DNA of 64,000 nucleotides from Tilletia caries. Lineage: Eukaryota; Basidiomycota; Exobasidiomycetes; Tilletiales; Tilletiaceae. The stretch lies in NCBI GenBank assembly GCA_032718865.1, contig JALUTQ010000009.1, forward strand, positions 62,001 to 126,000, in the 5' to 3' direction. Shown in pieces: positions 9,905 to 44,626 of this stretch (position 1 is the stretch's first letter; each line of letters starts with the position of its first letter). A program made the translations under genes and the position numbers. Below the pieces are notes generated by a model that saw only the letters and a program-made list of their open reading frames with translations, searched no databases and was not told the origin of the DNA.

Positions 9905-9911
9905 ATGTAAC

Positions 9912-9956
9912 CTCAGGAAAAGTGAAAACGCTGTGAAAACGCTGTGAAAACGCTGT
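9912..9956 (+). repeat. Left terminal inverted repeat of the large transposon
   Basis: CTCAGGAAAAGTG followed by an 11-bp unit GAAAACGCTGT repeated about four times, then CAGCGTC-type repeats. It is preceded by the ATGTAAC target duplication (9905-9911). Confidence 0.75.
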
Positions 9957-10065
9957 GAAAACGCTGCAGCGTCGGGGCAGCGTCGAGGAAAAAACACCAC
10001 TCAGATCTCCGGATGTTTTGCCGCGTTTTTGCAGCGTCGGTCGACGCGGTGGACAAGGACTGGGC

Positions 10066-10835
10066 TAAGGATGAGCCCGGAGCGCCCCGGAGTGCTCCGT
10101 ACTCCGGGGCCCATACTCCGGGGCGCTCCGCTGACTTTCTGTGGTGCTCCGTGCTCCGTCTCTTTTGAGAGTTACACCAACATCTTACTCCGTACTCCGT
10201 CAAGATAAGGAGCACCATAGAAAATTTACTCCGTGCTCCGTCAAATTATGAAGTGTCTCAAAAAGTCTACTCCGTACTCCGTAGCTACGGAGCCCGGATA
10301 ATCCGGGGGAGCTCCGTACTCCGGGAGATGATCTCACAAATCTCAAAACATGGTATGATTTCAGATATGTGTATGCTTTTGATCAAGCTTGTAGCAGCTA
10401 TGCTTAAGAGAACAGTCTGAGAGCGCTTGAAGAGCTGTTTTGGTCAGATTTAGACTGCGAGATGAGATTTGTGAAAATAAATTTTGAAAATTGACCCCAA
10501 AATACCCCCAAAATATCCATGTTTATGGAAAATCACTTTCCTTATGAGAAAGATGTGGAGGTCCCGGAGCGCCCCGGACTCCGGGGGTAACTCCGTACTC
10601 CGTCACTTTCACAGGTGTTTACTCCGTACTCCGGGGAATTTTTCGAAGCGGCCAAAGGTCAGCTCCGTGCTCCGGGAAATTCCTTGCGATGCTCAAACGT
10701 CTGCTCCGTACTCCGGCAACGGTGAGGTAACCTCTCGATTCTCACTCCGTACTCCCGGCTCCCCCGGAGCGCGGCCCCGGATAACCGGGGCGCTCCGGCA
10801 AAGCCGCTCCGGGGCTTACTCCGTGCTCGTCCTTA
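10066..10835. mobile_element. Miniature hAT-like element, copy 3 (770 bp)
   Basis: Starts TAAGGATGAGC and ends GCTCGTCCTTA. The 8-bp duplication GACTGGGC lies at 10058-10065 and 10836-10843. The interior is packed with CCGTACTCCGG-type repeats and has no coding capacity. The 8-bp duplication and the YARNG-type end fit a non-autonomous hAT. It lies in the left subterminal region of the large transposon. The other copies are at 14993-15799 and 29401-30156. Confidence 0.85.
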
Positions 10836-10843
10836 GACTGGGC

Positions 10844-12032
10844 GTCGGTCGACGCTGGTACAGCGCTGCTCAAACGCTGCTCACTACCAATGATCTGCGC
10901 TGCTCAACAGGGGCTCGACGCTGCTCAAACGCTGGAATAACCTTGTATTGACGCTGCGTATGATGGTACATTAATCACCCTAGCTGATACATCCTCCGGT
11001 GTGCCCTGCTGATGCCCGCAGCCCGATACACGTTCAGTGAGTGAGGTCGTGAGGAAGAAGGAGAGGTTAGGGCCTGAGGGCTGGACATAGTTGAGCGTTG
11101 AGAGCTGCAAAGTTCAAGAATCAGCTGAGCAAGAACGCACCGTTTCCAAGGCTGAGCACTGAGCTGCGAGCATATAGTCAGCGAGGAGCAAAGAGATGAC
11201 CAGAGAGAGGAATGACACGGAGAAAACTCACCTGAGCTTCGAAAAAGATACCTATGGCTATAGGAGAGGGTGCAAAGAAAGTTGATCAGTGTCAGTGTCA
11301 GTGTCAGTGTCAGTGACGCGAGTGAAAGCATGCATACCCACAGGTCTAGTCATCGCTGCTTTGCTGGCCTGCTGCTGTGTAGTTGATGATAGTGATGGTG
11401 AATACCAACAGAAGCAGAACAGGGGACGGATGCACTCACTCGATTGCTGCTGCTGTTGATGTGTTGCTGTTGCTGCTGTATCGACACTGTTGAGCTGACT
11501 TGATTCAAGATGAGCGCGAAAAGAGGCAGACGAGGGAATGAGGGTGTACCGGTGTACTCACCTTGTCGCTGTTGTTGCTGTGCTGTTGCTACTGCTGACG
11601 TGGTACTGGTGTAGTGGTGTTGGTGGTGATGTGGTGATTATGTGGTGTTCGTGGTGGTATGGTGATGTCGTGCTGGTGTGGTGGTGGTGGTCGTGCGGAA
11701 GAAGAGAAACGATTAAATCCGCCATCTTATATACCGCGAGGCGCGAGGTGGCAGCACACACACGCGCAGATCCGAAAGACGCGCAGCCCATACCGAAACG
11801 CATCCTTGTTGAGCCGATGATGTGCCTGGGTCAACAAGGTGCTGACTGCTGTTGCTGCTGAAGAAAGGGTGCCGAGTCAGTAGGGCAGGCGGCAGCATAT
11901 ATGCGCCTCAAACAGTCAACTCACAATTCAGCATCCTGTGCGCATCCGAAAAGGACGGCGTCGGTCTCAACCAAGGAGGCGGTCAGCAATGAGAGTGATA
12001 GAGAACGATGAGGAAGGGTGGAAGGTACTCAC
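10844..12032 (-). other. Left interior of the large transposon: exon-like scraps, simple repeats
   Basis: The first 120 bp continue the CAAACGCTGCTC subterminal repeats. Beyond that the minus strand shows several intron-donor-like GTGAGT sites (near 11230, 11430, 11560, 11920) between short open stretches. There is a GTCAGT hexamer array at about 11287-11316 and CTG/GTT-rich triplets at 11440-11660. No protein family was recognised. It looks like the scrambled downstream part of captured gene DNA. Confidence 0.4.
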
Positions 12033-12518
12033 TGTCTGGAAGTCCATAAGATGCGCCGCGCGTGCGGAGGTTGAGATGGGTGTCAACACTTTTGTGTTCG
12101 CCAGCAGCCTTGGGTGAGACCAATCCGGATTCCAGATCGGCGGCCGATCGAACAGCTGCACGCCGACGAGTTCCTCGACGGAGTAGACGGTGTTGTTCGC
12201 GTTGCCGCGCTGGTACGTACAGGCCGCGCGGTTGTTGGGTGCGGGCACGACGTTGGTACCGTGCAGTACGGAGGCGCGGTCGATGAAGGGGGCTGCCTGC
12301 TGCTCGGAGGCGCCGTCGCAGGGGATAGCGAGCAGGAGCTTGGTGGCCTGGAAGCTGTCGGTGGGGAAGCGGGATGCCAGGTTGGCGGCGTAGGCGACGG
12401 CGGCCTGGATCTTGCGCTTGGAGTCCTTGGCGAGCACGATGCGGAAGGGCAGGCCGGGCTTCATCAGCGAGGCCTTGATCCAGGCCGTGCCGTAGTTGAT
12501 CTGCTGGCAGGCCCAAGA
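12033..12518 (-). pseudogene. LHS1: Fragment of LHS1 (ER lumenal Hsp70-like chaperone)
   Basis: About 160 residues in one open frame, bounded by an acceptor-like CTCAG (12519-12523) and a donor GTGAGT (12027-12032). INYGTAWIKASLMKPGLPF followed by KDSKRKIQAAV is the start of the nucleotide-binding domain of the LHS1/HYOU1 branch. LASRFPTDSFQATKLLL and YSVEELVGVQL also match. The piece between them that carries the WKxxDRxFG region in the family is missing, and most of the protein is absent. LHS1 normally is an ER nucleotide-exchange factor for Kar2. Here it is captured debris inside the large transposon. Confidence 0.65.
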
Positions 12519-12790
12519 CTGAGGTTGAGACGCAGAGGAGCGCAAGGGGAGGCGGGCACAAGGGGAGCGCAAGAGGGATGGAGAGCGGTGTGGGACGTGG
12601 GTGTGCTGACTGTTGTGGTGGGCTGCTGTGGGTATGTGCGTACATATGTGGGTGCCGAAATTCTCTAAGTCTTTTCTTAGGAGCGTAGCTGGGTGATTGC
12701 GCAACGACCGCGTGCAAGCAGCGTCGACCGACGCTGGAGGTATGTTCGCGAAATGAGCTTTTTCACGAATTTCGTAAATCTGGAAATCGG

Positions 12791-12905
12791 CTCAGGAAAA
12801 GTGGGGGCGCTGTGGTCCCGCGGCTGAGGCTGCCCACCCGCTGCTGACCCGCTGTGGATCTGCTTCAGCGTCTCAGCAACGTCTGTACCCGCTGCTCAGA
12901 CGCCG
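12791..12905 (+). repeat. Internal CTCAGGAAAAGTG terminus with GC-rich subterminal repeats
   Basis: The left-end motif of the large transposon recurs here, followed by CCCGCTGCTGACCCGCTG-type repeats like those of the 2-kb CTCAG elements. No matching right end with the same flanking 7 bp was found. It may be the remnant of another copy, or the original left end of the Tnp2 unit. Confidence 0.5.
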
Positions 12906-13108
12906 CCGTCCCGATGTAACTTTTAGACTTGAAACTCGTCAATCCCAAAAACGCTCCGAAAGCTACAGCGTCTGCGCAGCTTGGGCCATCCCGCTCCCGA
13001 TCCGCTGCCATCAGGATGTTCACCCGCGGCAGTCATTTCAAGTCCTTCCTGTCGACTCTTCCACCCAAGATCTCGGCTCGCTACGCGCGCTGAAGACGCT
13101 GCTCAGCC

Positions 13109-16100
13109 ATGGTGAGTCTTCTTGTTATCTGCGCTTCGCTTCGGGCGCTGAACATGCCGCTTTCTTCTCCCTCAGCCCCGCTGGAGAGACCGCCCCGTGA
13201 CGTGCTACTGCTTCCACAAGTGCACGTTGGGCACTGGTCCTCCGAAGGACTGTACGGCACGGACAAGACAGAGCCACATGGAGGCAGACGAGCGCGTCGT
13301 TCGAGACCTGGTCGCTCTCGGACAGCAGCCGGCCCCGGAACTCCTCAAAGCAGCGGACCTCAACCGCTTGGCCCTGGTCGCCGAGGACATTGCCTCCCCT
13401 TCCCCTTCCCCTTCCCCTTCCCCTTCCCCCTCCACCTCACCTTCCTCTCCATCATCGTCCTCGCCTTCTCTTCCCTCCCTCGACGAAGGCATGAGCGGAG
13501 TATGGTTCGACGACGACACGGACGGCGGAGCGGACTCGGATCATGAGGAGGAACTGCTGGACGGCGAAGAAGATGAGGAGCGGGAGTTTGATGCTGAATC
13601 GGACGTGAACGAGGAGAGGCTTTTGCCCGGGGATTTCGACCTCTTCTTTAACGAGGGTGACGAGGAACGCGATGCGGATCGACATGGTGCTCAAGACCAG
13701 GCAGCCGATCAAGGCTACACGGATGAAGACGATTACGACATCAACGACGGCGGGACTCACAGTCGGCACGCCCAGGACCTCTTCGACCAGTTAGCAGGCG
13801 ACTACAGCCCGGGTCCCCGCCCTGAACATCGTCCCAATCCAGAGACATCTCCACTCACCTACGTCGACCGACTCACTCCAAGCGAAAAGGCCACTGTTCG
13901 TCATCTCGCACATGGATCCGTACCGACGGAACTCTGGCGCAGTACAAGGCGTTTGGTCGAGACATCGAGTCCGTCAACGAGCAGGAGGGGATCAAGATCA
14001 TGGGAAAGGATCGAGCATCTTCTCTCGTCCGGAATCTTACCGGCCTCGAAGAGCAGAGGTGGGACATGTGCGAGCATTCGTGCATGGCGTTCATAGGTCC
14101 ACATTCCGACCTGGAGCGCTGCATCGGGATAAGGAACAAGAAAACATGCGGCGCATCCAGACGAGACAGGCATGGAAAGCCGGTCAAGCAGTACGTGACA
14201 CTGCCTCTTCTTTCTCGGATTGTCGCCAAATTCGCATCCGGAAATGGATCGACATATTTGCACGATCGACATGAGTGGGCGTCTGGGTCGTGGGATCAGC
14301 CTCATCATCTCTTTCAAGATTGGTCAGACGGCGCGATCCATCGGCAGCTGAAGGCTCAAGGCATGTTTAACGACCCTCGACACGACGCTTTCATTCTCAG
14401 CACCGATGGCTCTCAGATCATCGACAAGAAGGTTTCGAACGCTTGGATCGTCCTTCTCACTTCTCTCAGCACACCAATCGAACATCGCTTCCGCCGCAAG
14501 GAGACCTTTGTCACGACTGTCATTCCTGGCCCAAACAATCCCGCGGACATCGATTCTTTCCTGTGGCCGATCATGGAGGAGATGGCGCAACTTGCGCGGG
14601 GGGTGTGGATGTGGGACGGAGCAAGGGAGGAGTGGTTTCTGTGGAGGGCTTGGCTTGTGGCTGCAGCGGCTGATCAGCAAGCGTCCAGCAAGCTCAACCG
14701 GATGACTGGACCGACGGGGCGACTCGGATGCAAAACTTGCCACATCATCGCCAACTACGCCGAGGAGGGGCAGACGGTGGGACACTTTCCCCTTACCACG
14801 GTCGACGGAGACCCACGCAGAGCGGCTTGGCGACCAGACGAGTACGATCCCTTTAACTTACCGCTGAGGGACGACGACAACTACGCCGAGAACCTGGAGC
14901 AGCTCGAAGACTGTGTCACGAATGCCGATCGCGCGGAGGTGCAGAAAGAGACCGGAGTAGGAGGACGACCCTTGCTCGCTTGGTCTCCTGCTTAAGGATG
15001 GGCGCGGAGTAAGCCCCGGAGTGGGTTTCCCGGAGTTCCCCGACTAGTCGGGGCCTCACTCCGGGGGAGTACGGAGTACGGAGTGCATTTTCGAGGATTT
15101 ACTCCTGCTGATTGAATTCTGCAGGAGTACGGAGCGCAAGCCTGTCATGTCCCCGGAGTACGAAGTACGGCAAGGCCTGGAGCTAAATTTTTCGCCGGAG
15201 TACGGAGTGACTAGCTCGAATGCCAGACGGAGTGCGGAGTTTCCCCGAAACTCCGGGGCGCTCCGGGGCCTTGCATTTTTTTCAAAATCAGGTCGCAATT
15301 TTTGAACATTTTTGGCCAGAAACGGGCAGATTTTTGCTCTGTTTTTTTCAAAAAAAACATTAGCAAAATTCATTTTCAGATATCTCATTTGGGGTTCATA
15401 TTGTGTGTTGGTGAGCTCTACGACCGCCAACGATGATTCTGCCGAACAAAAAAAACATGGTTGGAAGAGGGGCAATCAATGGAAGGGTCCACATTTCTCA
15501 AGTTTTTATAGGACCTCTGCGAACTTTCCCCGGAGTACGGAGTTTCGGGGGGGAGTAGTCGCGCTCCGTCACCCCGGAGTACGGAGTGGACTTTGAAAAT
15601 TTTACTAAATTCAGCCGGAGTACGGAGCTGGCGCAATGAGATGGGGAGATTTTGTGCGGAGTGCGGAGTGTAATTGGGGCGACTGCCTAAAAATGAGCGA
15701 AGTACGGAGTGCGAAAAAGAATCTCAAAATCAGCCGGAGTCAGCCGGAGTAGGGGCCCCGGAGTACGGAGCACTCCGGGGCCCTCCGCGCCCATCCTTAC
15801 TCCTGCTTTCACAATGCCGACATTCTTTCCCTCTGACGTCTTCCATCTCTTCGGCTGCAACATCCCCTCTCTCATCTGGGAGATACTCATCGACCCACAC
15901 GAAGGCGATCCTTTTTCCCTCAGCGAGGACCAACAAGAGCAGTTTGGCGAGGTCATTCTTGGAGCTGGACGAGACCTCCCAACCATCTTCTCTTCCGCTC
16001 CACTGAGAGACCCAGGAACGAATGCGAAGGCCCATTACAAGATGTTTGAGTGGTCTCTCGTGATCTACTTGTACCTGGTACCGTTCCTGGTCTCCATCGC

Positions 16101-17129
16101 GGCTCCTCTTCCCGTCATTGACATGATCATGCACTTAGAGACCGCAGTGCGCATCGCAACTTCAGACGGTGGATGCAACTCGACCGAGCTACACGACATG
16201 CAAGGCCACTTTAAGGCTTTCGTTTCCGCATGGGAGACACTGTACATTAGAGGCGAGCCATCACTCCTCTACAGAGCGACGTGAGTCTTCCAAGCTTCTT
16301 GTATGCTTGCAGATCCAATACTGACCTTTTATTTCTTCCTTCAATCAGTATTTCGGTGCATCACCTGCTGCATGTGTGGTACTTCATTTACTGCCATGGA
16401 AGCGTGCAAATCACGTCACAAGCCCGCTGCGAGCGTGAGGTGGGACTTGTCAAGAGGTCACTTCGGTCGCACAAGTCGCCATTTGTCGGGATGATGAACA
16501 ATGTGCTTCAGCGAGAGCACCTGCGGATCATCGACATTCTGCTTGACGATCGGCAAGAAGAGGAAGAGCAAGACGAAGCGCGAGCCCGCACGTTCCGACT
16601 GGAGACGATAATTCGTGACGACCGGCACCGACCGCTGACGGAGGACGAGCAAGAAGACGAGGGCCAGGCAATCCAACAATATCAGCAGCTTGGCCTGATT
16701 CCGACACCTTGTCCGCCTCTGATCCGTCGCGGCAAGTTGGTCCTTCCAGCACGAGTAGGAACTCGGCAGGCCAGTGTGCGAGGCAGTCGAATCGAGTCCG
16801 ACAGATCAAGGAAGGCATGTCGATTCTCCGCCATGACTCCAGAAGGCCTGATCTACGGAGAAGCTTTGCACTTCGTGTGCACCGATGGACAAGACCGGGA
16901 CGGCGAAGTTCAACACGGCAGGCATGTCTTCGACGGCAGGCACGTCTTCGTTATCATGCGCAAACTGGAGATCGTCGATGACGGAGGCGGAATCGTCAGG
17001 GGCACTTGAGCCGACAATGTGGGGCTCATGCGCGCCGAGTCGATCCGAGCATTGGTAGGAGTGGTTGAAATGGGCGGGCTCATATACATCATTCGCAAGT
17101 TGGCGTGGCTGGGCGGCGATGATGAGTAG
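13109..17129 (+). pseudogene. Tnp2-family (CACTA-like) transposase, disrupted
   Basis: The first exon is the ATG (13109-13111) alone, followed by a 64-bp intron; coding resumes at 13176 with a CYCFHKC zinc-like start. An acidic spacer precedes the Tnp2 core: CMAFIGPHSDLERC, then VIPGPNNPADIDSFLWP and MEEMAQLARGVWMWDGA, then GCKTCHIIAN and YDPFNLP. After the inserted 807-bp element come DVFHLFGCNIPSLIWEIL and, past an intron at 16281-16348, HHLLHVWYFIYCHGS. Breaks: a 1-bp frameshift near 13910; the element at 14993-15799, whose excision with one 8-bp copy restores frame; and an in-frame TGA at 17007-17009 before the Tnp2-like tail MGGLIYIIRKLAW (ends TAG 17129). The Tnp2 family cuts and pastes DNA. 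This copy cannot make full protein unless it is corrected or misread. Confidence 0.8.
14993..15799. mobile_element. Miniature hAT-like element, copy 1 (807 bp), inside the Tnp2 exon
   Basis: Ends TAAGGATGGGCGCGG and CCGCGCCCATCCTTA. Target duplication CTCCTGCT at 14985-14992 and 15800-15807. The interior has many CCGGAGTACGGAGT repeats. Removing the element and one duplication rejoins the transposase in frame (LAWSPA then FTMPTFF), which confirms the borders. Confidence 0.92.
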
Positions 17130-17619
17130 ACCGCATACCTCTGACCCCCTGACCTTGGACGCTTTGAAATCGACTGTCGATACTCGATGCATGCTCGTTG
17201 GCTTGTGTGATCGTCATCTGGTTCTTTGTTGGTTGGTGAACGCATACATTGCATCTACTTGCGTCTGGCTAGTCATCTCACGCTCAGTCAGCCATTGACT
17301 TCTGGCTGTTCGTTACAACAGTCCAGACCCCAGAAACGTTCTCATTGCGCAGGAGCAGGCGACTGACGTTCATTGTAGACTGTGGGGCTACGACAACCAG
17401 AGTGGTGAGTGTGCTGAATGCTATGTGTTCAGTGATGAGTGCATACATACACGTCTCGATCCTCAATGCTCATGCTTCCATCTCACCACCACTCACACAC
17501 TTACCCTTACAGTTACATTTACACTTACCATCATCCACATCACTTCCATAGCAACCCTACATACTCTCTTGCCGACAGCATCATCTTTCCCTCCATCCTC
17601 CCATATCATATAGACAGGC
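17130..17619. other. Spacer between Tnp2 and the companion gene
   Basis: About 490 bp with no open frame of note. It is pyrimidine-rich toward the right (CACTCACACACTTACCC) with a CATATCATATAG stretch just before the ATG at 17620, so it probably carries the companion gene's promoter. Confidence 0.5.
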
Positions 17620-20059
17620 ATGAACTGGACTCAAGAGCAGATTGCAGGGGTTCCTCTCGAGGTCATTCTGAACCATCCCGCTTTACGACAAGCAGCCGGC
17701 ACCATTTCACAGCAACTTCCGAGCGGACAAGCTACGCAGACGACCATGGCTTACCCTCCCGCAACATTCCCCAACATACCGATGCCGCCGCCTCCTTCTG
17801 GCTCAAGCAACAGCAACCAAGCATTGAGTCCCGGTTCCGACAATCAAATTCCCACAGGATCTTCCGCAAGCAACGTGGGCGGAGATGGGATGACGGAGGC
17901 GCAACGTCGATGCCTGCGATGGACCAAGGAGGACGCGAAGAAGGTCCACATGAACTTCGGCAAGAAGGACATCCTCGTCAACAACGATGGGTCCCCCATC
18001 AGCAAGGAGGAGATGACGGCAATCGAGACCGACATCCGTCAGGAGTGTCTTACACTCAACGACTACAAGATACCCGCGTATCAGGACAAGATGGTCCGCA
18101 ACTTCAAGTTTTGGAGTAGCCGACACTTGCATCTGCTCATCAAGATTTGCGACTCGGTCGAGGCTCGTCATCCCGCACTGAAGAAATGCAGTCAACACTA
18201 CAAGGCTCTGAAGTGCATCGAACTGCATCTGAAGGCAAAGCTTAGGACCCAGCGAAAGGACGAGGCTACTCATTCCAGCTCCTCCTCTTCGACCATACCC
18301 ACTCCATTGCCTTCAAAGCAATCGTCCCCGGTCAAGAAGCGAAACGCGTCGACCAGTCCCGACGTGCAAGTCAAGAAGCCAAAGATCACTCACGGTAAGA
18401 AGTCGACTCTCATCAACGACTCTGTCATCGACGACGAGTTCGCGGACGCCGACGACAGCGATACGGGGACTACTGCGATTGGTGAGTCTCTGAAGCTTTC
18501 GGTGCATGTATGCTAGTAGATGTGTCAACTGTCAATGTATGCACTACTTGGTTGACTTCCGCTCTTTTCTCAACGCGAGGCAGCGCCAGGAACCTCTCGA
18601 CAAACGCTCAGCAACATCAGCAACACCAAAGATCCTTCTTTCAGGGAACCTGATGCGAACAGTGAGTGAAACACCCGATCACTGGCCAGTGCATTGCATG
18701 TGGTTCAGACATACTCAAGACTCTTTCTATATCCTTTTTCAGAACTTCAAGCTCCCTCTCGACAGGAGTCCAGCAGCTCGGTGACTGCTCCAAGCTCAGA
18801 TTGTGAGTGCTCATCTATGCATTCAATTGGACTGATGAATTCATCAATGGTTTCTCTCTCTGTGGGCTTGCAGTACCATCGCTGGTGCTTCCACAGAAGC
18901 CTAGTAACGAAGACACTGCTGCAGACGGTGAGTGAATGAGTAATGAGTAGATGTTTGTGCTGAGGAATACGCATTGCTCACTGCTCTATTGCTTTCTTCC
19001 AAGTTGACCGCTCGGTGCCTCGAAAGAAGATCATCATCCCGACACGTCCTCCGACCATCTTTGATGACGCTCCCCTGTCATCCATGCCTCGTACGCTACC
19101 GCCTTCCGCCATATCTGCTGCTGTCGCGGATATCGTTGCCGAGGATTCAGCTCAGCTCGTCCAGTCGACTGTGGTAGGCCTTCAAAACTCCCTCGACTCG
19201 CGATACAGCGCGCTGGATTCGGTTTGCCTGTCAAACATACAAGCCGCCGTGGATTCTCTTCGTCGTGCCGTCAGCTGCGGACCGGATCCAAAAGGCGACG
19301 GAGACGAGGAGTACAGGCGATGGCTCTCAGGGCTCGAAGCTGCTTCCCCTCCAGACGAAGAGGACGACGACCGTGAGGACAAGATGGGAGCTACTTTCGG
19401 TCACAACGAGATCGGAAAATGGAACTACCACGAGGCTCTCCGTGACATCAAGACATACGGCAGCATCAAGAACGCTCTCCGTCTGCTCGCAGCTCTCCTT
19501 CGAATCTGGGCGATGGCCAAGGAGCAACTTCGCCAAGCAGGAAGCAAGCTCGGTCCTATCGTCGTCACCCATCTGTCACAGGTGTCAAACCTCATCGTCG
19601 TCGCTTTCGCTTTCACGGTCGACGTTTCCAATGTCGAGAAAGAGGCAACCGAAGCTGGACCTTCAGAGAAGCCCGCTACTGCCAAGAAGCTGGCAGAACC
19701 GCCCACTGCTGACAAGAAGCCTCGCGTTCGGGTCAAGAAGCTGCTGGATAACGGAATCGTCGACGAGACCGTTGTGAAGGTGAGCATCTCGTTTACATTA
19801 CCGTCGTCAGTATACTTATCTCTCCTTTGTCTTTCCGCAGAGTCTCAGCAAAAAAGCGTGCCTCACCCTTTGCGAGCTGGGGGGAATCGAGGTTCGGTCG
19901 AAAGCAAAGGTCGACGAGTTCCGCAAAGCCCTCACCGCTGCGATGGACGCAGGCAAGATCGAGATTTCAGCGACTCAGCTTCGTGAAGCCAAAGGCGACT
20001 TGCCTGTCGAAGGCACGATCAAGAGTGGTGACAAAGGAAAGAGAAAGGCCTTGTCGTGA
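17620..20059 (+). CDS. Intact 682-aa companion protein of the Tnp2 transposon (TnpA-like role possible)
   Basis: I do not recognise the family. Six exons: 17620..18481, 18584..18661, 18743..18802, 18874..18927, 19004..19779, 19841..20059. All have GT-AG borders and matching phases, giving 682 aa with no break. It is thus in better shape than the transposase 0.5 kb upstream on the same strand. An N-terminal Pro/Ser/Gln segment is followed by a basic helical region (about 95-200; MTEAQRRCLRWTKEDAKKVH, FKFWSSRHLHLLIKICDSVE). Then comes a Ser/Lys linker (VKKRNASTSPDVQVKKPK). The conserved-looking C-terminal half has KWNYHEALRDIKTYGSIKNA, a Lys/Pro linker and a final helical domain (TLCELGGIEVRSKAKVDEF). 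CACTA elements usually encode a second DNA-binding protein (TnpA) beside the transposase; its position suggests that role. Confidence 0.75.
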
Positions 20060-20506
20060 TGGTGAGTCCTCAATGCTACATCAAACAGAGTTGTCACTGA
20101 ATATTGACCATTCTATCCCCCAATGTTCGATATGATCGATCGCGCAGATTATCGTCCATAAACACTGCGCTCTCCCGACTTCTCGCCTCGCTCGCCTCTC
20201 CCTTCAACGCTGCCTGCTCCTTTCCCCCCTACTCACTCCCTAGTCCCTCACCAGTCACCAGTCACCAGTCACAATCCCCAACCCTGCCGTCGTTGCTGTC
20301 CCGCGCCTCGCCTCCGTCGTTCGGAAGCAGTACAAGGAACAGCTACTATGGGCGATCTCTAGGCGATCTCTAGTTCTTGCCTTCATCCTCTGCGTCTCTT
20401 ACTTCCGGCTTCAGGCTTCAACTCACGAGTCACGACTCGTCTCGGTCGTGCATCACAACTGACCCTTCTCCCATTCTTCCCGTGTCCTTTAACCTTCTGA
20501 TTTAGG

Positions 20507-34510: not shown

Positions 34511-36905
34511 TCATCGAATTTCTACAGTGTGTTTCGACGGGAACTGTGGAAGAGGCGCCTGAACAATATTCTGCAATCCCATACCCATGTTTAAGATTGT
34601 GTGCATGGTTGGACGTTCGTAGGGATCCAGCACCAAGATGTCAGGCAGGATTCGAATGAGATCGTCGTATGAAGAGTCTGAACCCCGTACCATTCGCAAG
34701 CGGGCGTGCAGAGGTGGACGTGGTACCACACCGGGCGGTAGTCTAGCACCCCGCCCAAATCCACGCTGCGGATCGCTGTACGGAATCCTCTCGTCGCATA
34801 CAGCGCCGAGTAGGGCGTCGGATCCGGGCCAGAGCTCTTGACCCATCTTGTCCATGTCTGCAGCGATGAGGCTGATCATCTCGTCGGCACGGCCGGCGTA
34901 CCAAGGAGGCGCGCCAGTGGGATCAAGCACGTGTGCGAGCACGACTCCAAAGCTCCAAACGTCTACCGCACTGCCGAGCTCCATGGAACGCAGCAAGGCC
35001 TCTGGAGCCCGATACCAGAGACTGACGACACTCTGAGATCGTAATTGGGGCGGTGGTTGACGTAGGTCTTCTGCGAGGCCGAAGTCGCCGATCCGTACGT
35101 GTCCTCGATTGTCGATGAGGATGTTTGCCGGCTTAATGTCAAAGTGAGATAATTGAGCCTGTAAAAGATATAAGCGCGCTGTGAGTCCGGAGTTGTGGAT
35201 GTTGATCAAGTTTGGACAGAGACTCACCAAGTGAACAGCCCGCAGTCCTTCAGCTACTTGTGACATCAAACTTGCGATGACGGCCGCAGAGAGGAGTCCG
35301 CGTGAGGGTTGATGCGAGAGGACCTGAAGAAGGTCGGTCTCGCAGAAGTCAAGCACAAGCTGGATTTGCGGGCGATTGGAATTTTGCACGAGTAGAACGT
35401 CGCGCAATCGTATGATGTTTGAATGGGAAATACGCACGAGCGCACCGAGTTCATTCCATACCGTCCTCGGAAAAAGACTGGTGAGTTCGGCCATTTATTG
35501 ACTTAATGGCAACGGGCTCCGGTTGAAGGTAGTCGCGAGCCCGGAACACTGAACCTTGGGAGCCAGAACCCACAAGTTTGTACGAAGTATACCGTCCGGG
35601 CCCCCGCATCCACGTAAAAATGTCTGTCGCCTTGACGAGGCACGTCTTCATGCCAAATACGAGGGAGTTGACCTCGCGCTGGCCATCCAGAGGCGCGGGT
35701 CGACACTTGCGTGTTGGTGAAGGGAGTGAGAGCCAACCGGATTCGGTCGTTGCCGGAATCGCTTCAGGGAGAGGGTGACCGGAAAGCGAAGGTCCGGCGG
35801 CAACCTGTGTCGGGTTGCAGACGGCAGGATCGATCTTCTCATGCGCCGTGTCGACGGGATTAATCCGGACCGCGACTTGTTCCGCGTCCACGGGATCAGC
35901 CGTGTCAACGAGATCGATCTGGACGCCAGCTTGGATGGGATCGGTGAATCGTACCGTGTCGATGTTGATGGGATCGGTTTGAACGACGGGATCGACAGAT
36001 TCGGCTTGGACCGCGACTTGCATCGTGTCGACGGGATCGGTCTGGACTGCGACTTGTACTGTATCGGCGGGTTTGGACGGTTCCGTCTGATCAGCTCCGT
36101 CCAGCTGTCTTCTGCAGGCCGTCAGCTCGTCCTCGAGACGATCGGCCTTGGTATCGAGGGCGTCGAACTCGGCTCGTAGGTTGTCGAGTACGGTCGTCTG
36201 GGTTTCGAGCTGCTCGTCGGCCATTCGGAGAGATAGGATGGCGCCATCTCGATCCTCGTTGGCTTTCCGGATCTGAGCCTGGAGAGCGCTATTCTCTTGG
36301 CGAGCGAAGTGTAAACAGGAGGTGAGTCGGTCGAGAGATCCATGATGGATGTGAAGCCAATTCAGCTTCTGCTGTAGCCCAGTCACTCGCTCGTGAAGTT
36401 CGACAACTTGCTCCTTCGCCACAATCCACTCGTGGACGTCGCGCAGGCGACTGGGCGTGACGGGAAATACCAGTCGTCCGTAGGCCCCCGCGGAGGAGAT
36501 GTGGTGGTGCGCCTCCTCTGGGGAGTAGCCGGAGTCGAGATGGAGGAGCTCAGCGGCGAGCTCCGGGATGAGAGCGTGAGATATGGCCTCAATGTGGTCA
36601 AGATCGAATCCGATGGCTTGAGCACGATAGTGGACGCAGAAATTGAGCCACAACTCTCCGACTGGGCCATAAGGACCGGCACCTCGTGTGTCGGTAAAGG
36701 AATCGGGAGGGCGAGGTCGTAGAGCCGTGCGAAGTACTTCGTTTCCAGCCGACATCGGCGAGCCAAAAAGTTTGTTGAAGATCGTGTCGAATTGGTACGA
36801 GGACGTGGGCCAGAACAAGCGCGCGCCTTCGCGCACCACCTCTTCAGCAGCAGCGGACGGATGTTTGCTGTGCGCTCGTACTTGTTGGAAGGCTTTGAGC
36901 TCCAT
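34511..36905 (-). pseudogene. Coiled-coil protein kinase, cargo of the hAT (one frameshift)
   Basis: The N-terminal part from ATG 36905 runs about 470 residues. It has a helical region, a likely coiled coil (about 165-275; ELHERVTGLQQKLNW, ADRLEDELTACRRQL), then degenerate VQTDPVDT-like repeats (about 285-365). The kinase domain starts KLVGSGSQGSVF and PVAIK. The frame changes near 35496 (ATAAATGG; one base too many), then runs LGALVRISHSNIIRL, HFDIKPANILI, GDFGLAED, SLWYRAPEALL and DVWSFGVVLAHVL. A 69-bp intron (35159-35227) with GTGAGT...ACAG keeps phase. The WYRAPE pattern is CMGC/CDK-like. HFD replaces HRD, so it is a non-RD kinase, but the catalytic Asp and DFG remain. Substrate unknown. 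The frameshift could be an error or decay. Confidence 0.7.
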
Positions 36906-38116
36906 TGCGGCAAAATTTCGCTGACGGCCGTGCAGGACATGACTGTCGACGCGCGCCAGAGCTAAACGGAAAGTAGTGCATATTAATTATTATGTAATAG
37001 TAACTCGGCGAATGCGAATGCTAATCGGACGTCGGACACGTCAAATTATTTGTCGAACTAATCCGACGAATTGTCGGATGCTAGTCTGAGATTTCTGTCA
37101 CAATTGTGTGTTCCTACTAATTTGAAGTGCATGACTCAAAGTAGTTTGTGAACGCGAAGGAGGGCCTTTCAAGCATCTCAGCCCGGATGAAAACCCAAAA
37201 AAGGGTCCGACTAAGACAAGGTTCGGCCAGTTATTATAAGTTGTCCATTTTTGGTCCGCAGTTAAGTTTAGTTTAAGTTGGAACCCGGCGCCGGCGCCCG
37301 CAGTTTAGTTTAGTCACAGTTTAGCCACTTACTATCATTACAGTTAACTTAATTTTTCGCCTGTCACTATACGTTACTTACAGTTATTTATAATAACTTA
37401 ATCGCGTCTCAGCCACCCAATTCACGCGGTATCTACCTCAAGATGTCTGGTACTATTCCAGTTTGCCATTCGGCACGTATTTTGCCGCCTCCGAGCTCGC
37501 TCGTACATGTTTCCTCTCTTGACTACCTCCAAAGACTCATGCTTTTTAGTTATTTTTAGTTACTTGTTACAGTTAATATTAGTTACTGTGGGCACAGTTG
37601 TTAATGGTTAATTGTTCCAGTTATTGTTAGTTACTGGATACAGTTATTAATAGTTGACTACTATACTTGTGATTTGTTACTGTGCGCACTGTGAGTAACT
37701 TTAAGTAACTGTAAGTAACTATAAGTAGCTATAAGTTTGCACTGTAAGTAGCTGTGAGTAACTGTAAGTTGGGTCAAATTTCGGCTTGCGAATGGCAACT
37801 TTTAGTGACTATAAGTTACCGTGTCCGGGCCCATACAGTTTAAGTTGACTTAAATTTTCCGGAGGCTCCGCCGCCCGCAGTTTAGTCACAGTTTAACTAG
37901 ATTAAGTTGACTTACCCGCAGTTGCAGTTAGGTAAGTTGGTAAGTTGCCGAGCCTTGGACTAAGAGACTAAGACCGACTATAGTCGGACCTGGCGGGGCC
38001 TTAGTCATAGTCATAGTCGGATGCCAAAAACCCTTAGTCATAGTCTAGTCTAGTCGGGACTAAGGCTTAGTCGGATAGTCTTAGTTTCTTAGTCGCCTTA
38101 GTTTTGCCGAGCCCTG
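36906..38116. repeat. Right subterminal, AT-rich repeat region of the hAT
   Basis: Unlike the GC-rich surroundings, this 1.2 kb is full of GTAACTGTAAGTAACTATAAG, AGTTTAGTTTAAGTT and TAGTCGGACTAA units. The last 140 bp mirror the left end. It also holds the promoter side of the kinase gene. No coding frame. Confidence 0.7.
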
Positions 38117-38388
38117 CTCAAGGTGATGGAGCTCGGCGGTGTTGTGCTCTCGCTTTCTGACTCCAAGGGAACTATGCTCGCCAAGGACACTAGCAAGGGC
38201 TTCACCAAGGAGATGATCGAGAAGGTGTACGAGATCAAGACGGCGCGGAAGGAGTTGAGCACGTTGGGCGATGAGGGTGGAGCACTCGTCTTCCACGGCG
38301 ATGGCGCTCGTCCATGGGATCTTGTCGACAAGTGAGTTCCTGTTCGCCTTGCAGGGGAGAAGACGCGTTTGCTGAACCCGACTTCTGA

Positions 38389-38502
<114 letters not shown>

Positions 38503-38706
38503 TGAGTATGGTACGCGATTCTATTAAGTTGACACCATTCAATCGAGGCTAAACAACTCTTCTTCATCTCATCGCAGCATGGGTCTGGAGCAATCTGCCA
38601 TTGACGTACTTGAGAAGACTCGTATGGCGAAGGGAAAGAACGTCCCGGTAAGGCGGCGAACAGCGGTGGTGTTACCGTGTCTGGTCTGGAGATGGCTCAG
38701 AACAGG

Positions 38707-40585
38707 TGAGAGAAAGAGCCCCGCCCCGTGGCTTGCACCGCGACGCACGCGAACGCTTCTCCTTCTCTTCTTCTTTGCAGTACATCAACCACCCAAGTCC
38801 CAAGGTGAGTGAGTATGTTGCTACTCACCCCTCTTCCCACCTTCTTCCTCATGACCTCGTCTCTGTTTCTCTCTTCTCCTTCTTCTTCTCCAGGCTCCAG
38901 CAGGTCTTTCAATCATGAAACAGGTACGTGTTTCATCACTCGTGACCAGATCGTGCGTCTGTAGTTCTGTGCTTCATGCTGACCCCGTTCCTTTTCTCCT
39001 CCCTGACGGAAGTTCCATCCCTGATATATGCGCTCCACCATTTTTCCGGCGGTTTCCGCAAGTCGCTGATGGCTAACCTTTCTTTCCTTTTTTTGATTCT
39101 TCCCATCGCTGACCCTGGATCCTTGTCGACTAGCTTGACGATCTTTTGCTTTATACCGCTACTGCTCACCTACTGCTCACAACGCTGACAGCTCTCTCAC
39201 CCTTGCCTTTCATACCCACTTCTTCTTTGTTGTGAATTGTGATTGCAGATGTGATTTACTGTTGCTTGCGCACACTGATGTTCTCGCTCTCAAGCGTCTC
39301 CGAGGCGCCCTTCAACACTCCAGGCTCGAGATGGACATGGTTTCGGCATGCATGTTTATTCGTGGGTGAGTCCGAGTGTGGATCTGCCCTTTCCCCTTTG
39401 ACACCACTTCCCTCGACTGACGATTCGTCTCTTAACATATGGACTCCCACTTTCCTATCGCCCCTCAACTTGGATGAGTGCTAAAGCTCATGATACTACC
39501 CTTAACCACCTACTCATCGTGCCAGTCCTTCTTCTTTACAGTGCAGGCCCATACGGCATACATTGGTGGAGACAATCAGGGGAGCGTCACAGGTCACTGA
39601 ACATGGGAGTGCATGCTAATATTTTCTTCCCCGTCCGTCTCATCGTCTGTCCCCGCTGCGCGCTGATCTCCGATTTGGTGTTGAATGCTGACTGCTGACC
39701 TTCTTAAGCTTCAACCTTTCATAGTTAGATCAAGCTTGGTTGACAATGATTGCTACCCGTACCCGCAACCGACCTCTTCGTCCGCGACATTGACCTCCTC
39801 ACAGTCAGTAGTCCTCTTACCCAACCTCTTCCCCAGCTATTCTCTATTTCTTCCTCCTTTTCTCCAAGCTCACATCCAAATACGCTTCACCCAGAACTTC
39901 CGCGCTCTGCATACGTCCTACATCGCCAACCCATTCCACCTCCTACCTCTCACCATCCCCTCCTCCTCCTCTTCATCCACAGCAACAAGCACAGCCGTCT
40001 TCCACCCAGCGCCCGCCGCCCACGCCCCACTCCCAACCAGCGTCGACACGTATTGGACGTCGTACAACAACCGGCACGCTGCCTGCTCCTTTCCCCTACT
40101 GACTACTCACTCCCTCACCAGTCACAATCCCCACCCTGTATTTACTACCAGGTCGAGAACATAATGCCAGCTGGCTGCTGGATTGTAGCTGCACTTCAGC
40201 CGGATGACAGCGGGTGAACAGCGGGTAGCTGCCTGATATGATCCAATTAAATTACTGGTTGTCAGTGGGTGTACAGCGGGTGAATGGCAGGTGAACGGCG
40301 GATGGACAGCTGAACGTGTGTCCACAGCGGGTAGACGCTCGGCTGCTGGAGACTGTATCTGACAGCGCCCGCTGTAGACCTGCTGTTGAGACGCTGCTTA
40401 CAGTCAAACAGGAAATGGTTGACCGTAGGCCCAAAAAAAATTTGAAGCTCCAAAGTTTCTTTTCGAAAACGCGACGCAATGAAAAGGAGGCAGACCTTCC
40501 GATTTTGCTACAGAGACCATGATCAATTGATGAGACCCTCCATCAACTGGCCCTGACATCAACTCAACATTCAACAGACTGTATC
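38707..40585 (+). other. Exon-like scraps and inverted-repeat sequence in the large transposon
   Basis: After the GDH1 remnant come tiny exon-like pieces with splice signals (38780-38804, YINHPSPK; 38894-38923, APAGLSIMKQ; an exon near 39249-39365 reading LALKRLRGALQHSRLEMDMV). I do not recognise them. CAGCGGGT repeats start near 40205. At 40396-40424 the sequence ending GGTTGACCGT is the inverse of 43287-43318. Confidence 0.4.
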
Positions 40586-42581
40586 CTCAGTAAAAACGTA
40601 TCCGCTGTGGACCCGCGGCTGAGGCAGCGAACCCGCTGCAGACCCGCTGACCCCCGAAATGAAAGTTTTGACAGTTTTGACGTCTCAAACCACCCGCTGC
40701 GTATCGGCGGCGAACCCGCTCTGAACGAAAGACGTCAAGTTCACCTCCCAGAGCAACAATTTCTTGCAAGATCACATTCTTACCACCCGCGGCAAACCCG
40801 CTGCGCACGCGCCGTGGCCGGTGAGGCGTGAGTACCGAGTCTTGCGCGTCTTCACCGGCCCCAGCTGTCCACTGACCAGCGACCACTGCTTCTATCCTTG
40901 GCAGACTCATCATGGCCTACTCGTCCTCCGACGCTCACCACACCTCTCCCCCTTTCACTCACAAACGAAGCTCGCGAAGGTTAGGTGAGTGCAGCATACA
41001 TTCTAGTGCCCCCCTCCCAGCAGCAGCCCCCCGACGAGCTCGCGCCGTGGAATATGCTTCTGAACCACCCGCTACGACCAGTAAGCACCTTTCCCTCTCG
41101 CTGCTGCTGCCCTGTCATCGTTGCTGATATCACTCTGCTATCCGGACCATCATCGACAAGCACAGCAGCAACAGAACCACACCAATGCCGCTCCCCACAA
41201 CCACTCGCACTACCACAGCTCACCACCGCACCCGACCCCGAGCCCGACGCCGACTCCGCCCGCTCCACACCCACCCTCGCCTTCCCGCCCTCACCAGATC
41301 TCTCATCACCGCGTGGCGGTGGGCTGGCTGCGTCGCTCTCGGTGCCCCAACGCCCCGGCCAGAATCGCGGACGGAGTAGCTCGCTTTTGAAGCTGGAGCA
41401 TATTCAGGACTCGCACGATGTCATGCTTGACCAGAACGCGGGCTTCAATGCCAATGCCGACTGGGTAAACCACAAGGTCAGTCCCTCCCTCCTACACACA
41501 TGCGCAGTGTCGTAACCCCCCCCCACACACACACTGAACACATTCTCTCTCTCTCTACATGAAGGCGCCTGGGTCGTCCACATCGTCCTCATCCTCGCCG
41601 GCAAGATCCTCCTCGACGTCGTCCCCGGCATCACCCAAGACGTCTCCTGGACACTCGTAACCTGGGCTACAAAAGTAAGTGCTTATCCTTTCGACCACAA
41701 CTCAGCAGTCTGTCGGTTCCAAGAATGCGCGCTAACTCATCATCTTGACTGTGGCCTCAGCACATGGAGATGGTCTTCAAACTGGTCAAGCATGTCTCTC
41801 TCCTCTTCTCATTCTGACTCTCTGCAGCTCACGCTTCTCCTTCACTGTTTCTTCTCCCCATCTGCAGTCGTGCTCGATCCCTCGCTGACAACTTAAACAT
41901 ACTGACATTCTGACAAACTGATTACTGACTGTCGTATTGTTACTGACCTTTTAACACATCATCTGCTGAGGTTTGCGTCTTCATCTATCAGTGTTCCTCG
42001 ATGCTCGCTCCAAATTCCGATTGTTGACGCCTTCATCTCTTCCGCAGCGCAGTAAGCATGCCAACCAACGATCGTTCTTTCTTCTCTCTTCTCTTGGTGA
42101 GTCTCACTCCTCTCAATCTCTTTTCGCAATGGATTAACACACAACTTCCACTCCCTTGAATCCTTACAGCGCAACATCATCTGTGGATTGCCGATTGGGG
42201 GAGGAGCGGAGGGGAAGAGAATACGACCGGACCTGAGCATGGGGAGAAGGAGCAGAGGAAGTGGGAGCGGGACGGGGCGGGCAAGGTATGCAGCAGGGTA
42301 GGGAGAGGCTGGGGGGGGGAGAGGTGGAAGTGTATTGGCAGCGGGTCAGCAGCGGGTTAGCAGCGGGTCAATAGAATCATTTTTGTCTGTCGATTTACCG
42401 CGTGTTAGCCGTGAGATAGCAGCGGGTTAGGAGCGGGCGACCCGCTGTAGATCGCGGATTCTGTGTCCAAGCGGAATCACAGCGGGTGACCCGCTGCTAA
42501 CCCGCTGGGAATGCGAGTCTCATCCGCTCCAAAGTCACCGCGGATTAGCAGCGGGTACACAGCGGGTTCGTTTTTACTGAG
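40586..42581. mobile_element. 2-kb CTCAG element C1 carrying ORM1 exons
   Basis: Both ends read CTCAGTAAAAACG inward. The 7-bp duplication CTGTATC lies at 40579-40585 and 42582-42588. About 290 bp at the left and 700 bp at the right match element C2 (57590-59663) in opposite orientation; the middle (about 40880-41870) does not and holds ORM1 exons. CAGCGGGT repeats mark both subterminal regions. No transposase gene is present, so it depends on one supplied elsewhere. Confidence 0.85.
41011..41673 (+). pseudogene. ORM1: ORM1 (sphingolipid regulator) fragment in element C1
   Basis: Orm proteins are ER membrane inhibitors of serine palmitoyltransferase. Seen: a Ser/Pro-rich N-terminus, then KLEHIQDSHDVMLDQNAGFN and ANADWVNHK ending at a GTCAGT donor (41477), then GAWVVHIVLILAGKILLDVV and PGITQDVSWTL, the first membrane segments of the family. 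The exon after the intron is one base out of phase, and another base is missing near 41658 before NLGY. The rest of the protein is absent. It is captured, decayed host sequence. Confidence 0.75.
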
Positions 42582-43511
42582 CTGTATCATCATGCTTGAA
42601 TTTCCGAATGATAGACATCGCACAAGATTTTACGGAATGCTAGCGAATGTCCAGGATACCATCTCTGCCGAGTTTCGAGGTGTTTGAAGCAGTTGTGATG
42701 GTGTGAGGTGTTTACGGTCAAGCTGTGGATGGAAAGAGGAGGAAACTCCCTGATGTAACCGTTGCTGCGTACCACCAACAGCAACAAAACTCAACGAGTT
42801 CTTCACCATTTTGTGCGATTCAACCTGGTAGTAGCAGCATGGTAGCTGATAATGCGCATGCTGAGCATTTCCCTAAGGTCTGTCGGGTGTTTGATGGCAC
42901 TGTGTGCCACAGTTGTGGTGCAATTGCTTCTGTCTTTTCTTTTCCTCTTGCCGTTCCCTGTCTGTCCTGTCACCGTTTCACTTCCATTTTGTCCCATTTC
43001 CCTTTCCCTCTCTCTGCCTTTGCCACTCGCTCAACTCAGCTCTCTCTTTCGTGTATGATTCCTATACTCTCTCCATCGAATCAGGTACTCTCTCGTCCTC
43101 ACTGCGTACGCTGGGTAACTAGCGGTGGTGCGGTCGTTGAGAAAAAGAATCATGTCACGCGCAAGTGAGGGCAAACACAGCGTCTGTCGCAAATGTGGTT
43201 GGTCTGGTGACCACACGGGAGTCACCGCAAAATCAGATTTGGCCTTCGCGAAATAAATCGGAGGGTGCTGTTGGAAATTACGATGGTCAACCACGGTCAA
43301 CCATTTCCTGTTTGACTGTAGCAGCGGTATGGGCAGTGAGTCTGCAGCGGGTCTACAGCGGGTCTACAGCCGGTGGGCAGCTTCACACAGCGCCCCCAGC
43401 TTTCCTGAGCAGAATTCCTGTTTTGATCAATCATTTTCCCCAGCGTCATCGCAGCGTCGAGCGACACGCCTCCAAAGTCCGCAGCGTTCTCCCAGCGTTT
43501 TGCCAGCGTCG
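42582..43511. other. Right interior and subterminal part of the large transposon
   Basis: No gene recognised. 42600-43280 holds short frames only. 43287-43318 (ACGGTCAACCATTTCCTGTT...) is an inverted copy of 40396-40424. After it come GCAGCGGGTCTACAGCGGG repeats, then CAGCGT-type subterminal repeats. Confidence 0.45.
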
Positions 43512-43556
43512 ACAGCGTTTTCACAGCGTTTTCACAGCGCATTCACTTTTCCTGAG
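43512..43556 (-). repeat. Right terminal inverted repeat of the large transposon
   Basis: Read on the minus strand it begins CTCAGGAAAAGTGAATGCGC and continues with GAAAACGCTGT units, matching 9912-9956 with two or three mismatches. ATGTAAC follows at 43557-43563. Confidence 0.75.
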
Positions 43557-44626
43557 ATGTAACGTATGTATGTACGTCGGAGTTTGGATCGTCGTCGTCC
43601 ACCTCAAGCAAAGCAAGGCAGGCAGGGGCCGCAGCGATCGGTGCTCTCAGCTCTGTGACGAGGGGCGAGCGGAGGCAGTTCACCAGCATGGACGATGGGA
43701 GAGAAGCTGGACATAATCCTGCCATCGAAGGCAATCCCCTGTCCAGTGTCCAATAAACAAGAGGGCGATCCACAGACGCCGCGCGCCGTATTACCGCTCG
43801 CCTCGTCGGGCAGCAGTCCGGGGTCTGCATCCTGAAGCGTGAAGCGTGAAGCGTGAAGCGTGAAGGTGAGACCGAGGTGAGCCCAGAAGAAGCAACAAAC
43901 CGGCGTCCGCTGAACCCTTGCCGAAAGTAGCATGCTGCCAGCAGCGATCCCAGCGCTAGCGAAGGCCCAGAACCAGAGTCCATTTTGATTCGGCGCTATC
44001 GACAGGATAAAGTCAGGCTTTCAGATTGCCAACTTGTTTTGTTTGCATGCGAGTTGCGACCCTTGTCCTCGCCTTCGACGCCAACCTCAACATTTCGATC
44101 CTCGATGCTGTCGATCTGACGGTCAGGGGCGTCCATCGACAGCAGACATGCGCACACATGGTCAAGGAATATTGAGAGAGAGAGGTGTTCGATTGGAACA
44201 TGATATGTATATGAAGAGCAGGAAAATCGAGAACCGAAGCCAGAAAGAAAGAAAGAAAGAAAGGAAGAAGGAAACGAAGGACGAAGAGAAGAAAAGCACT
44301 CGTGACAGAGGAGACGTGTTTGTTGTTGAGGAGACCAGAAGGGGAAAGGACAAAGGCGAAGGCGAAGTCCCGACCAGCCGGTCCGAACAGTATATGCTCC
44401 CGAGTAATCCGTCCCGCAGAGGTCGAGGAGCACCTGCCCTCTTCGCGTAGGTAACAAAAGCCCAGAAACGGTGACGATCGGCCCGAATGGCACTTGACTT
44501 GACGAGCCCGCCCGGCCCCGTGAGGGAAGCGGAGTTGGGGACCAGCCTTGACGAAGTAGGTCTCACGATATGCGCCTGGCGCTCGAGCTGGCTCGCTTGC
44601 TCGATGGTGCTGGGCCACTGGACCCA
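43557..44626. other. Right host flank; 3' region of the Zn2Cys6 gene
   Basis: Over 1 kb without a supported gene. A GTGAAGC heptamer repeats about four times at 43836-43864, and AAGAAAGAAAGAAAG lies at 44245-44262. A 213-codon minus-strand frame here (44013-44654) overlaps the end of the regulator gene and has no family signal. Confidence 0.5.

What the first reader, a model, noticed from the sequence alone, without database searches (positions are those of the whole stretch)
9905..43563. A 33.6-kb Tnp2-type transposon with 7-bp target duplications, hidden by five nested insertions
Inverted ends of about 45 bp (CTCAGGAAAAGTG plus GAAAACGCTGT repeats) lie 33.6 kb apart, and the 7 bp outside each are ATGTAAC. 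Subtracting the five nested elements leaves about 15 kb with a Tnp2 gene and a companion gene. Known CACTA/Tnp2 elements start CACTA/G and make 2-3-bp duplications, so a 7-bp target site with a CTCAG end would be a distinct lineage.
Basis: partly seen in the sequence, partly recalled or inferred. Interest (0 to 1): 0.9.

Follow-up and report, generated by a model that had tools for sequence, protein, structure and literature searches.

The report
Tnp2 transposons with 7-bp target duplications

Summary
The ends and ATGTAAC repeats are real, but they do not bound one Tnp2 transposon. Two outer copies (2175 and 2500 bp, C22 and C33) run straight across window 12791/43409 without Tnp2. Tnp2 lies in a separate inner element (12791-43409); its complete counterpart on C32 is 12,456 bp, 0.6% mismatched, with TCCTCAG on both sides. 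The family-level claim survives: of 39 end pairs counted, 31 have a perfect 7-bp repeat, 4 an 8-bp one and 4 neither; none of 344 mispairings reaches 6 bp. Of 11 Tnp2 copies fetched, 6 had both ends found, all with 7 bp (four by a search that required equal flanks). One 7-bp element has empty-site paralogues. The transposase shows D, D, C(2)C, H(3)H, E, and its model matches RAG1 best. The one source found that states a range gives 2-5 bp for this clade. Against: the inner element itself shows no 7-bp repeat. Host: probably a wheat-bunt Tilletia. Verdict: a new variant of a known kind, a CACTA/EnSpm-like lineage with a longer stagger, with short members that carry host gene pieces.

The parts
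9905..9911 (.). left target duplication ATGTAAC of the outer element
   Evidence: read directly
9912..9956 (+). left terminal inverted repeat of the outer element, CTCAGGAAAAGTGAAAACGCTGTG...
   Evidence: I5; shared with the C22 and C33 copies
9912..12790 (+). left part of the outer element; copies on C22 (2175 bp) and C33 (2500 bp); pieces match dispersed genomic sequences
10066..10835 (.). about 770-bp MITE (TAAGGATG ends) nested in the outer element, 8-bp duplication GACTGGGC
   Evidence: absent from L009 and L010; ends read
12791..43409 (+). inner Tnp2 element (30.6 kb with its own nested insertions; 12,456 bp in the C32 copy); ends CTCAGGAAAAGTGGGGGCGCTGTGG / CTCAGGAAAGCTGGGGGCGCTGTG
   Evidence: 80 mismatches in 12,603 aligned sites against C32
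13152..14993 (+). Tnp2 transposase gene, first part; frame broken here and then cut by a MITE; one 766-codon open frame in the C32 copy
   Evidence: PF02992; C32 open frame
16251..17009 (+). frame holding the last part of the Tnp2 gene (H-x3-H and E motifs); ends earlier than in C32
17614..18516 (+). companion gene 2 (300 aa, no Pfam match above its cut-off); relatives in 6 of 8 other Tnp2 regions compared, among them all 5 other complete elements
   Evidence: Pfam
18964..19986 (+). companion gene 3 (340 aa here, 355 in C32); relatives in 7 of 8 other Tnp2 regions compared (one of them over 72 aa only), among them all 5 other complete elements
   Evidence: Pfam
14994..15799 (.). MITE inserted in the Tnp2 gene, 8-bp duplication
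   Evidence: absent from C32; ends
22737..28544 (+). copia-type LTR retrotransposon nested in the inner element, 5-bp duplication
   Evidence: Pfam domains; absent from C32
28959..38116 (.). hAT element nested in the inner element, 8-bp duplication CTCAAGGT; holds protein-kinase frames and a MITE (29400-30149)
40401..43318 (.). element with TA duplication and 28-bp perfect inverted ends (Tc1-like by structure only), nested in the inner element
40586..42581 (.). 1996-bp element with CTCAGTAAAAACG ends and 7-bp duplication CTGTATC, carrying an ORMDL gene fragment (about 41153-41671)
   Evidence: empty sites
43410..43556 (+). right part and right inverted repeat of the outer element
43557..43563 (.). 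right target duplication ATGTAAC
57590..59663 (-). second element of the CTCAGTAAAAACG type in the window, 7-bp duplication ACTTATC

Best explanation
The segment is a nest. A short outer element (about 2.2 kb, no recognised transposase, 7-bp duplication) took up a MITE and a complete Tnp2 transposon of about 12.5 kb, which in turn received a MITE, a copia element, a hAT element and a TA-target element holding yet another CTCAG-type element. The Tnp2 transposon belongs to a multi-copy lineage in a Tilletia-like fungus. Its RAG1-fold DDE transposase most likely recognises the CTCAG/CTCTG/CTCAT/CACAG ends and joins them to target DNA at sites staggered by 7, sometimes 8, bp; the gaps are filled to give the duplications. 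The same machinery presumably moves short elements with matching ends, some of which have picked up host gene pieces. Shown: ends, duplications, an empty site, Tnp2 inside complete elements, catalytic motif. Inferred: that Tnp2 is the enzyme that makes the stagger, and that it acts on the short elements.
For: Outer copies uninterrupted. C32 copy 12,456 bp, TCCTCAG on both sides, 766-codon open frame. Five further complete Tnp2-bearing elements with 7-bp repeats. Pairs chosen by ends alone: 13 of 17 at 7 bp and 3 of 17 at 8 bp, 7 of 9 at 7 bp; controls: 0 of 272 (longest 5) and 0 of 72 (longest 3) mispairings reach 6 bp. Empty site: 14 paralogues span it in the listing, the three read have one CTGTATC. 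The smallest Tnp2 element (7351 bp) shows no other transposase family in 7 of its 8 frames of 200 codons or more. D, D, C(2)C, H(3)H, E conserved. Model matches RAG1 or RAG-like chains in all 44 hits with E <= 0.001.
Against: The inner element itself has no 7-bp repeat where it sits in the outer one. Three more pairs lack a perfect repeat (C10:127213-134809, ends of two types; C30:595246 and C5:611017). Of 11 Tnp2 copies fetched, 5 gave no pair of ends. Four of the six Tnp2-bearing elements were found by a search that required equal flanks of 5-9 bp. Many further Tnp2 places could not be fetched and may differ. No strain comparison and no activity data.
Confidence: 0.82

Rival explanations
1. 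One 33.6-kb Tnp2 transposon with ends 9912/43556, moved as a unit, with later nested insertions.
For: Ends and 7-bp repeats are real, and the inner and outer ends are alike.
Against: Two other copies with the same ends hold no Tnp2 and are continuous across 12791/43409; the inner borders have their own ends, complete elsewhere at 12,456 bp with its own 7-bp repeat.
Confidence: 0.04
2. The 7-bp duplications are made by an unrelated transposase (a 7-bp hAT or a Kyakuja-type enzyme) that recognises these ends; Tnp2 is a passenger.
For: hAT7 and Kyakuja with 7-bp TSDs exist in fungi (PMC12730594, passages seen); a hAT copy lies in the window.
Against: The six complete elements, over several end types, all enclose Tnp2; no second transposase family in 7 of the 8 long frames of the 7351-bp element; no KDZ, Plavaka or hAT Pfam match in the 8 Tnp2 proteins; the window hAT makes an 8-bp repeat and has other ends.
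Confidence: 0.08
3. The long repeats are chance or a product of the search.
For: Four elements came from a search that required equal flanks, which also listed other candidate pairs around the same copies.
Against: 35 of the 39 pairs were chosen by ends alone, and 31 of those 35 have perfect repeats (27 of 7 bp, 4 of 8 bp); mispairings never reach 6 bp; empty site.
Confidence: 0.01

Closest known systems
CACTA/EnSpm (Tnp2, PF02992) and the wider CMCT clade
   Same: Tnp2 domain, D-D-E with C(2)C and H(3)H, terminal inverted repeats, large multi-gene elements, short relatives with gene fragments; the profile search reaches two plant proteins with Transposase_21.
   Different: 7-8 bp duplications against 2-5 bp (PMC12730594, section 16 read); most ends CTC..GAG, not CA..TG.
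SmTRC1 and related animal/fungal CACTA-like elements
   Same: Transposase_21 domain (PMC1636069, passages seen).
   Different: SmTRC1 shows a 2-bp direct repeat in 7 of 14 copies and CCC ends (same passages).
RAG1/Transib
   Same: RAG1-like predicted fold and the C(2)C, H(3)H motif that PMC12730594 lists for both.
   Different: 5-bp duplications (recalled); identity in the fold alignments only 10-13%.
Kyakuja (KDZ)
   Same: 7-bp duplications in fungi (two Laccaria families, PMC12730594, passages seen).
   Different: No KDZ profile match here; those families are described as having no inverted repeats.
Plavaka
   Same: Fungal members of the CMCT clade.
   Different: 2- or 3-bp duplications, TGT or CATCA ends (PMC12730594, passages seen); no Plavaka profile match here.

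Membership tests
CACTA/EnSpm (CMCT clade) | Tnp2/Transposase_21 domain above the curated cut-off | tested here: met
   47.4 and 53.3 bits against a cut-off of 28.6; 32.7 to 53.2 bits in 6 of 6 relatives
CACTA/EnSpm (CMCT clade) | D, D, E with C(2)C and H(3-4)H between second D and E | tested here: met
   20 aligned relatives: D 20/20, D 20/20, C(2)C 17/20, the two H 16/20 and 18/20, E 18/20 with 2 gaps; the genome's own copies show the D, D and C(2)C part and the window frame the H and E part
CACTA/EnSpm (CMCT clade) | target duplication of 2-5 bp | tested here: not met
   31 of 39 pairs 7 bp, 4 of 39 8 bp, 4 of 39 neither
CACTA/EnSpm (CMCT clade) | 5'-CA..TG-3' termini (stated for most cases) | tested here: not met
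   CTC..GAG in most; CACAG..CTGTG in the C35 and C40:1927608 elements
Plavaka | Plavaka transposase profile | tested here: not met
   only PF02992 passed its cut-off in the 8 Tnp2 proteins scanned; that Pfam holds a Plavaka model is recalled
Kyakuja-Dileera-Zisupton | KDZ transposase profile | tested here: not met
   no such match; that Pfam holds a KDZ model is recalled
hAT (7-bp variant) | hAT transposase in the element | tested here: not met
   no hAT domain in 7 of the 8 frames of 200 codons or more of the 7351-bp element
Pack-type non-autonomous elements | host gene fragments inside short elements with family ends | tested here: met
   ORMDL piece 95% like C5:156890-157412, next to a piece 96% like C36:1105327-1105447
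any cut-and-paste family | demonstrated excision and reinsertion | not testable with these tools
   no strain or bench data

The most novel reading that the evidence does not exclude
A separate lineage of Tnp2 transposons, old within the Tilletia clade, whose RAG1-fold transposase changed its strand-transfer spacing to 7-8 bp and most of its termini to CTC..GAG, while the rest of the CMCT clade keeps 2-5 bp: a natural case for asking what in a RAG1-like enzyme sets the stagger. The transposase may also carry a BAH-like chromatin-binding domain (weak fold hits only).
Probability: 0.6. Interest if true: 0.72.

Novelty: new variant of a known kind. Interest (0 to 1): 0.62.

Why it matters
Duplication length is a main criterion for sorting DNA transposons into superfamilies. 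A Tnp2/RAG1-fold lineage with 7-8 bp would break that rule for this clade, could cause its short members to be misfiled (as hAT- or KDZ-like) in repeat annotation, and offers a comparison for how a RAG1-type pair of active sites spaces its two joining events. It also appears recent (0.6% mismatches between the window and C32 copies), and at least one short member carries a host gene piece.

Tried and rejected
Rejected: a single 33.6-kb element. Rejected: chance for the repeats. Led nowhere: the sequence search of solved structures gave one hit, a TFIIA chain at E 0.86. The model of the window's truncated C-terminal frame was poor (mean pLDDT 54.7), so no fold search was made with it; the BAH hint (ranks 47, 49 and 50 are named BAH domains; rank 46 is DNMT1; the table gives no aligned range) stays untested. 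The joined outer flanks were printed but not searched, so no empty ATGTAAC site was sought. Papers: in the listings of the ten searches and in passages of four papers (PMC12730594, PMC9674265, PMC4455052, PMC1636069; of the first also the outline with abstract and section 16) I saw no report of a Tnp2 or CACTA element with a 7-bp duplication; Repbase itself could not be searched.

Rows left out of the 39 pairs: the C3:787140-791120 element, whose flanks were fetched but whose far end was not recognised; six single ends or other sites printed (L068, L069, L086, L087, L088, L089); single ends near the Tnp2 copies on C34, C39 and C40:1938943. Of the 11 Tnp2 copies in the regions, both ends were found for 6; C34, C39 and C40:1940195 have one recognised end and C19 and C30 none. 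One search listed up to five candidate pairs for a copy; I took those with CTC or CACAG ends, and the others, some with 7-9 bp equal flanks, I judged to be chance. The two imperfect pairs score 0 in its strict test; by eye C5:611017 shares 7 of 8 flank bases and C30:595246 5 of 7. Not done: the duplication length of the Tnp2 places outside.

Full report
Setting. The window is C9:62001-126000 of a 38.1-Mb genome in 40 contigs. The transposase found only Tilletia proteins in its first search (14 of 14 hits). In the widest search, 19 of 24 hits are named Tilletia, 2 are unnamed, 1 is Botrytis and 2 are plants. These searches scored only the roughly 7990 candidates that share most words. One genomic copy is nearly identical to a T. 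controversa protein, and another, filled in 43% of the columns, lies at zero branch length from a T. laevis one, so the host is probably of the wheat-bunt group; this is an inference.

The observation. The ends at 9912 and 43556, their 45-nt complementarity and the flanking ATGTAAC are real. Searching the genome with each end gave two further complete copies, on C22 (460457-462631, 2175 bp, CCTTCGA on both sides) and C33 (1252750-1255249, 2500 bp, GCCCGAGT on both sides), and a one-ended fragment on C10. Aligned to the window, both copies follow it, apart from smaller insertions and deletions, up to 12791 and resume at 43409. The stretch between is therefore an insertion into a short element, and the outer ends do not belong to the Tnp2 gene.

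The inner element. At 12791 and 43409 the insertion has its own ends, CTCAGGAAAAGTGGGGGCGCTGTGG and CTCAGGAAAGCTGGGGGCGCTGTG. The copy on C32 (1046592-1059047, reverse) has the same two end types, is 12,456 bp long and is flanked by TCCTCAG on both sides. It matches the window over its length with 80 mismatches in 12,603 aligned sites, gaps not counted (the pieces overlap slightly). Against it the window copy carries a MITE (14994-15799), a copia element (22737-28544, 5-bp duplication), a hAT element (28959-38116, 8 bp) and an element with TA duplication (40401-43318). That last one holds a 1996-bp element with CTCAGTAAAAACG ends and CTGTATC on both sides. The C32 copy has a 639-bp tandem duplication that the window lacks.

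Duplication length. Seventeen pairs of related ends, chosen by their ends alone, gave 13 repeats of 7 bp, 3 of 8 bp and one none; the failing pair joins ends of two different types. Eight of the 17 are of the inner element's type, and all eight have 7 or 8 bp. Nine pairs of the CTCAGTAAAAACG type gave seven of 7 bp and two that fail the strict test. Adding the three outer copies, the C39 element, the two CTCAGTAAAAACG elements in the window, six complete Tnp2-bearing elements and the inner junction makes 39 pairs: 31 with 7 bp, 4 with 8 bp, 4 with neither. Four of the Tnp2-bearing elements came from a search that demanded equal flanks of 5 to 9 bp; without them, 31 of 35 have a repeat of 7 bp (27) or 8 bp (4). 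Rows left out of this count are named under Tried and rejected. When left and right flanks are mispaired, 0 of 272 and 0 of 72 reach 6 bp. The CTGTATC insertion has an empty site: 14 paralogues of its host element span it in the listing, and the three that I read have one CTGTATC.

Tnp2-bearing elements. Of 11 Tnp2 copies in the fetched regions, both ends were found for six: C32 (12,456 bp), C40:200091 (7351), C27:742738 (8853), C22:674323 (7955), C35:59177 (10,539) and C40:1927608 (11,326). Three of the other five have one recognised end and two none. The ends of the six differ (CTCAGG, CTCTGG, CTCATG, CACAGT), yet all six have 7-bp repeats. Besides Tnp2, two companion frames of about 300 and 350 aa have relatives in the 5 other complete elements; of the 8 other regions compared, 6 and 7 match, and the C34 region matches neither. 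Neither companion has a Pfam match above its cut-off. In the 7351-bp element no other transposase family was seen in 7 of its 8 frames of 200 codons or more.

The transposase. The 8 Tnp2 proteins scanned pass only the PF02992 cut-off. In 20 aligned relatives both aspartates are in all rows, C(2)C in 17, the two histidines in 16 and 18, and the glutamate in 18 with 2 gaps. The model of a T. indica relative (mean pLDDT 73.9, pTM 0.73) matches RAG1 or RAG-like chains in all 44 hits with E <= 0.001; Transib comes next at E 0.096. RMSD values are large (8.5-11.1 A), so this is a shared fold, not a close match. In the careful tree (24 rows) the 19-row clade holding the 7 genomic copies used there has support 97/96, and copies with 7-bp duplications lie in both of its main parts, so the trait is probably as old as those two parts together; inner support is weaker (87/78, 89/87), and the program warns of long branches meeting at the base. 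The quick tree with plants and Botrytis gives the same warning.

Comparison. Kojima 2025 (PMC12730594; abstract, passages and section 16 seen) states that CMCT lineages share CA..TG ends in most cases and make 2 to 5 bp duplications; Plavaka 2 or 3 bp; Kyakuja and hAT7 7 bp. SmTRC1 shows 2 bp in 7 of 14 copies (PMC1636069, passages seen). By sequence motif and fold this lineage belongs with the CMCT clade; by duplication length, and mostly by termini, it fails two stated features, so I call it a variant lineage and not a plain CACTA element.

Capture of host sequence. The 1996-bp element contains 519 bp that are 95% identical to C5:156890-157412, which overlaps the genome's ORMDL match (C5:157298-157751), next to a piece 96% identical to C36:1105327-1105447; a second element copy on C3 has the same ORMDL piece. 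Pieces of the outer element also match many dispersed places, so it too may hold captured sequence; this was not resolved.

Against the reading. The inner element has no 7-bp repeat at its own junction; at most GC could be a repeat. A blunt or aberrant insertion, or loss of one repeat, would explain it, but nothing here tells which. No strain comparison was possible, and no movement has been seen.

Noticed in passing
window 28959-38116: hAT element holding protein-kinase frames (34511-35494, PF00069 E 7.9e-37; neighbouring frame 35451-36986), which may be a captured host gene.
   Followed up: partly
window 10066-10835, 14994-15799, 29400-30149: MITE family with TAAGGATG ends and 8-bp duplications; its terminal part matches over 30 places in the genome.
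   Followed up: partly
window 40586-42581: Short CTCAG-type element with a captured ORMDL gene fragment; a related copy is on C3:787140-791120.
   Followed up: yes
window 57590-59663: Another CTCAGTAAAAACG-type element with ACTTATC on both sides.
   Followed up: yes
window 12791/43409: The inner Tnp2 element lacks the 7-bp repeat that its relatives have.
   Followed up: partly
P0001 (model): Weak fold hits to named BAH domains (ranks 47, 49, 50, E 0.2-0.3); the table gives no aligned range, and that they fall on the strand-rich C-terminal part (about 890-1014) is my guess. No Pfam support.
   Followed up: partly
C40:1927608-1938943: One 7-bp-type element ends 10 bases before the end sequence of another type, so two insertions seem to sit almost side by side.
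   Followed up: no
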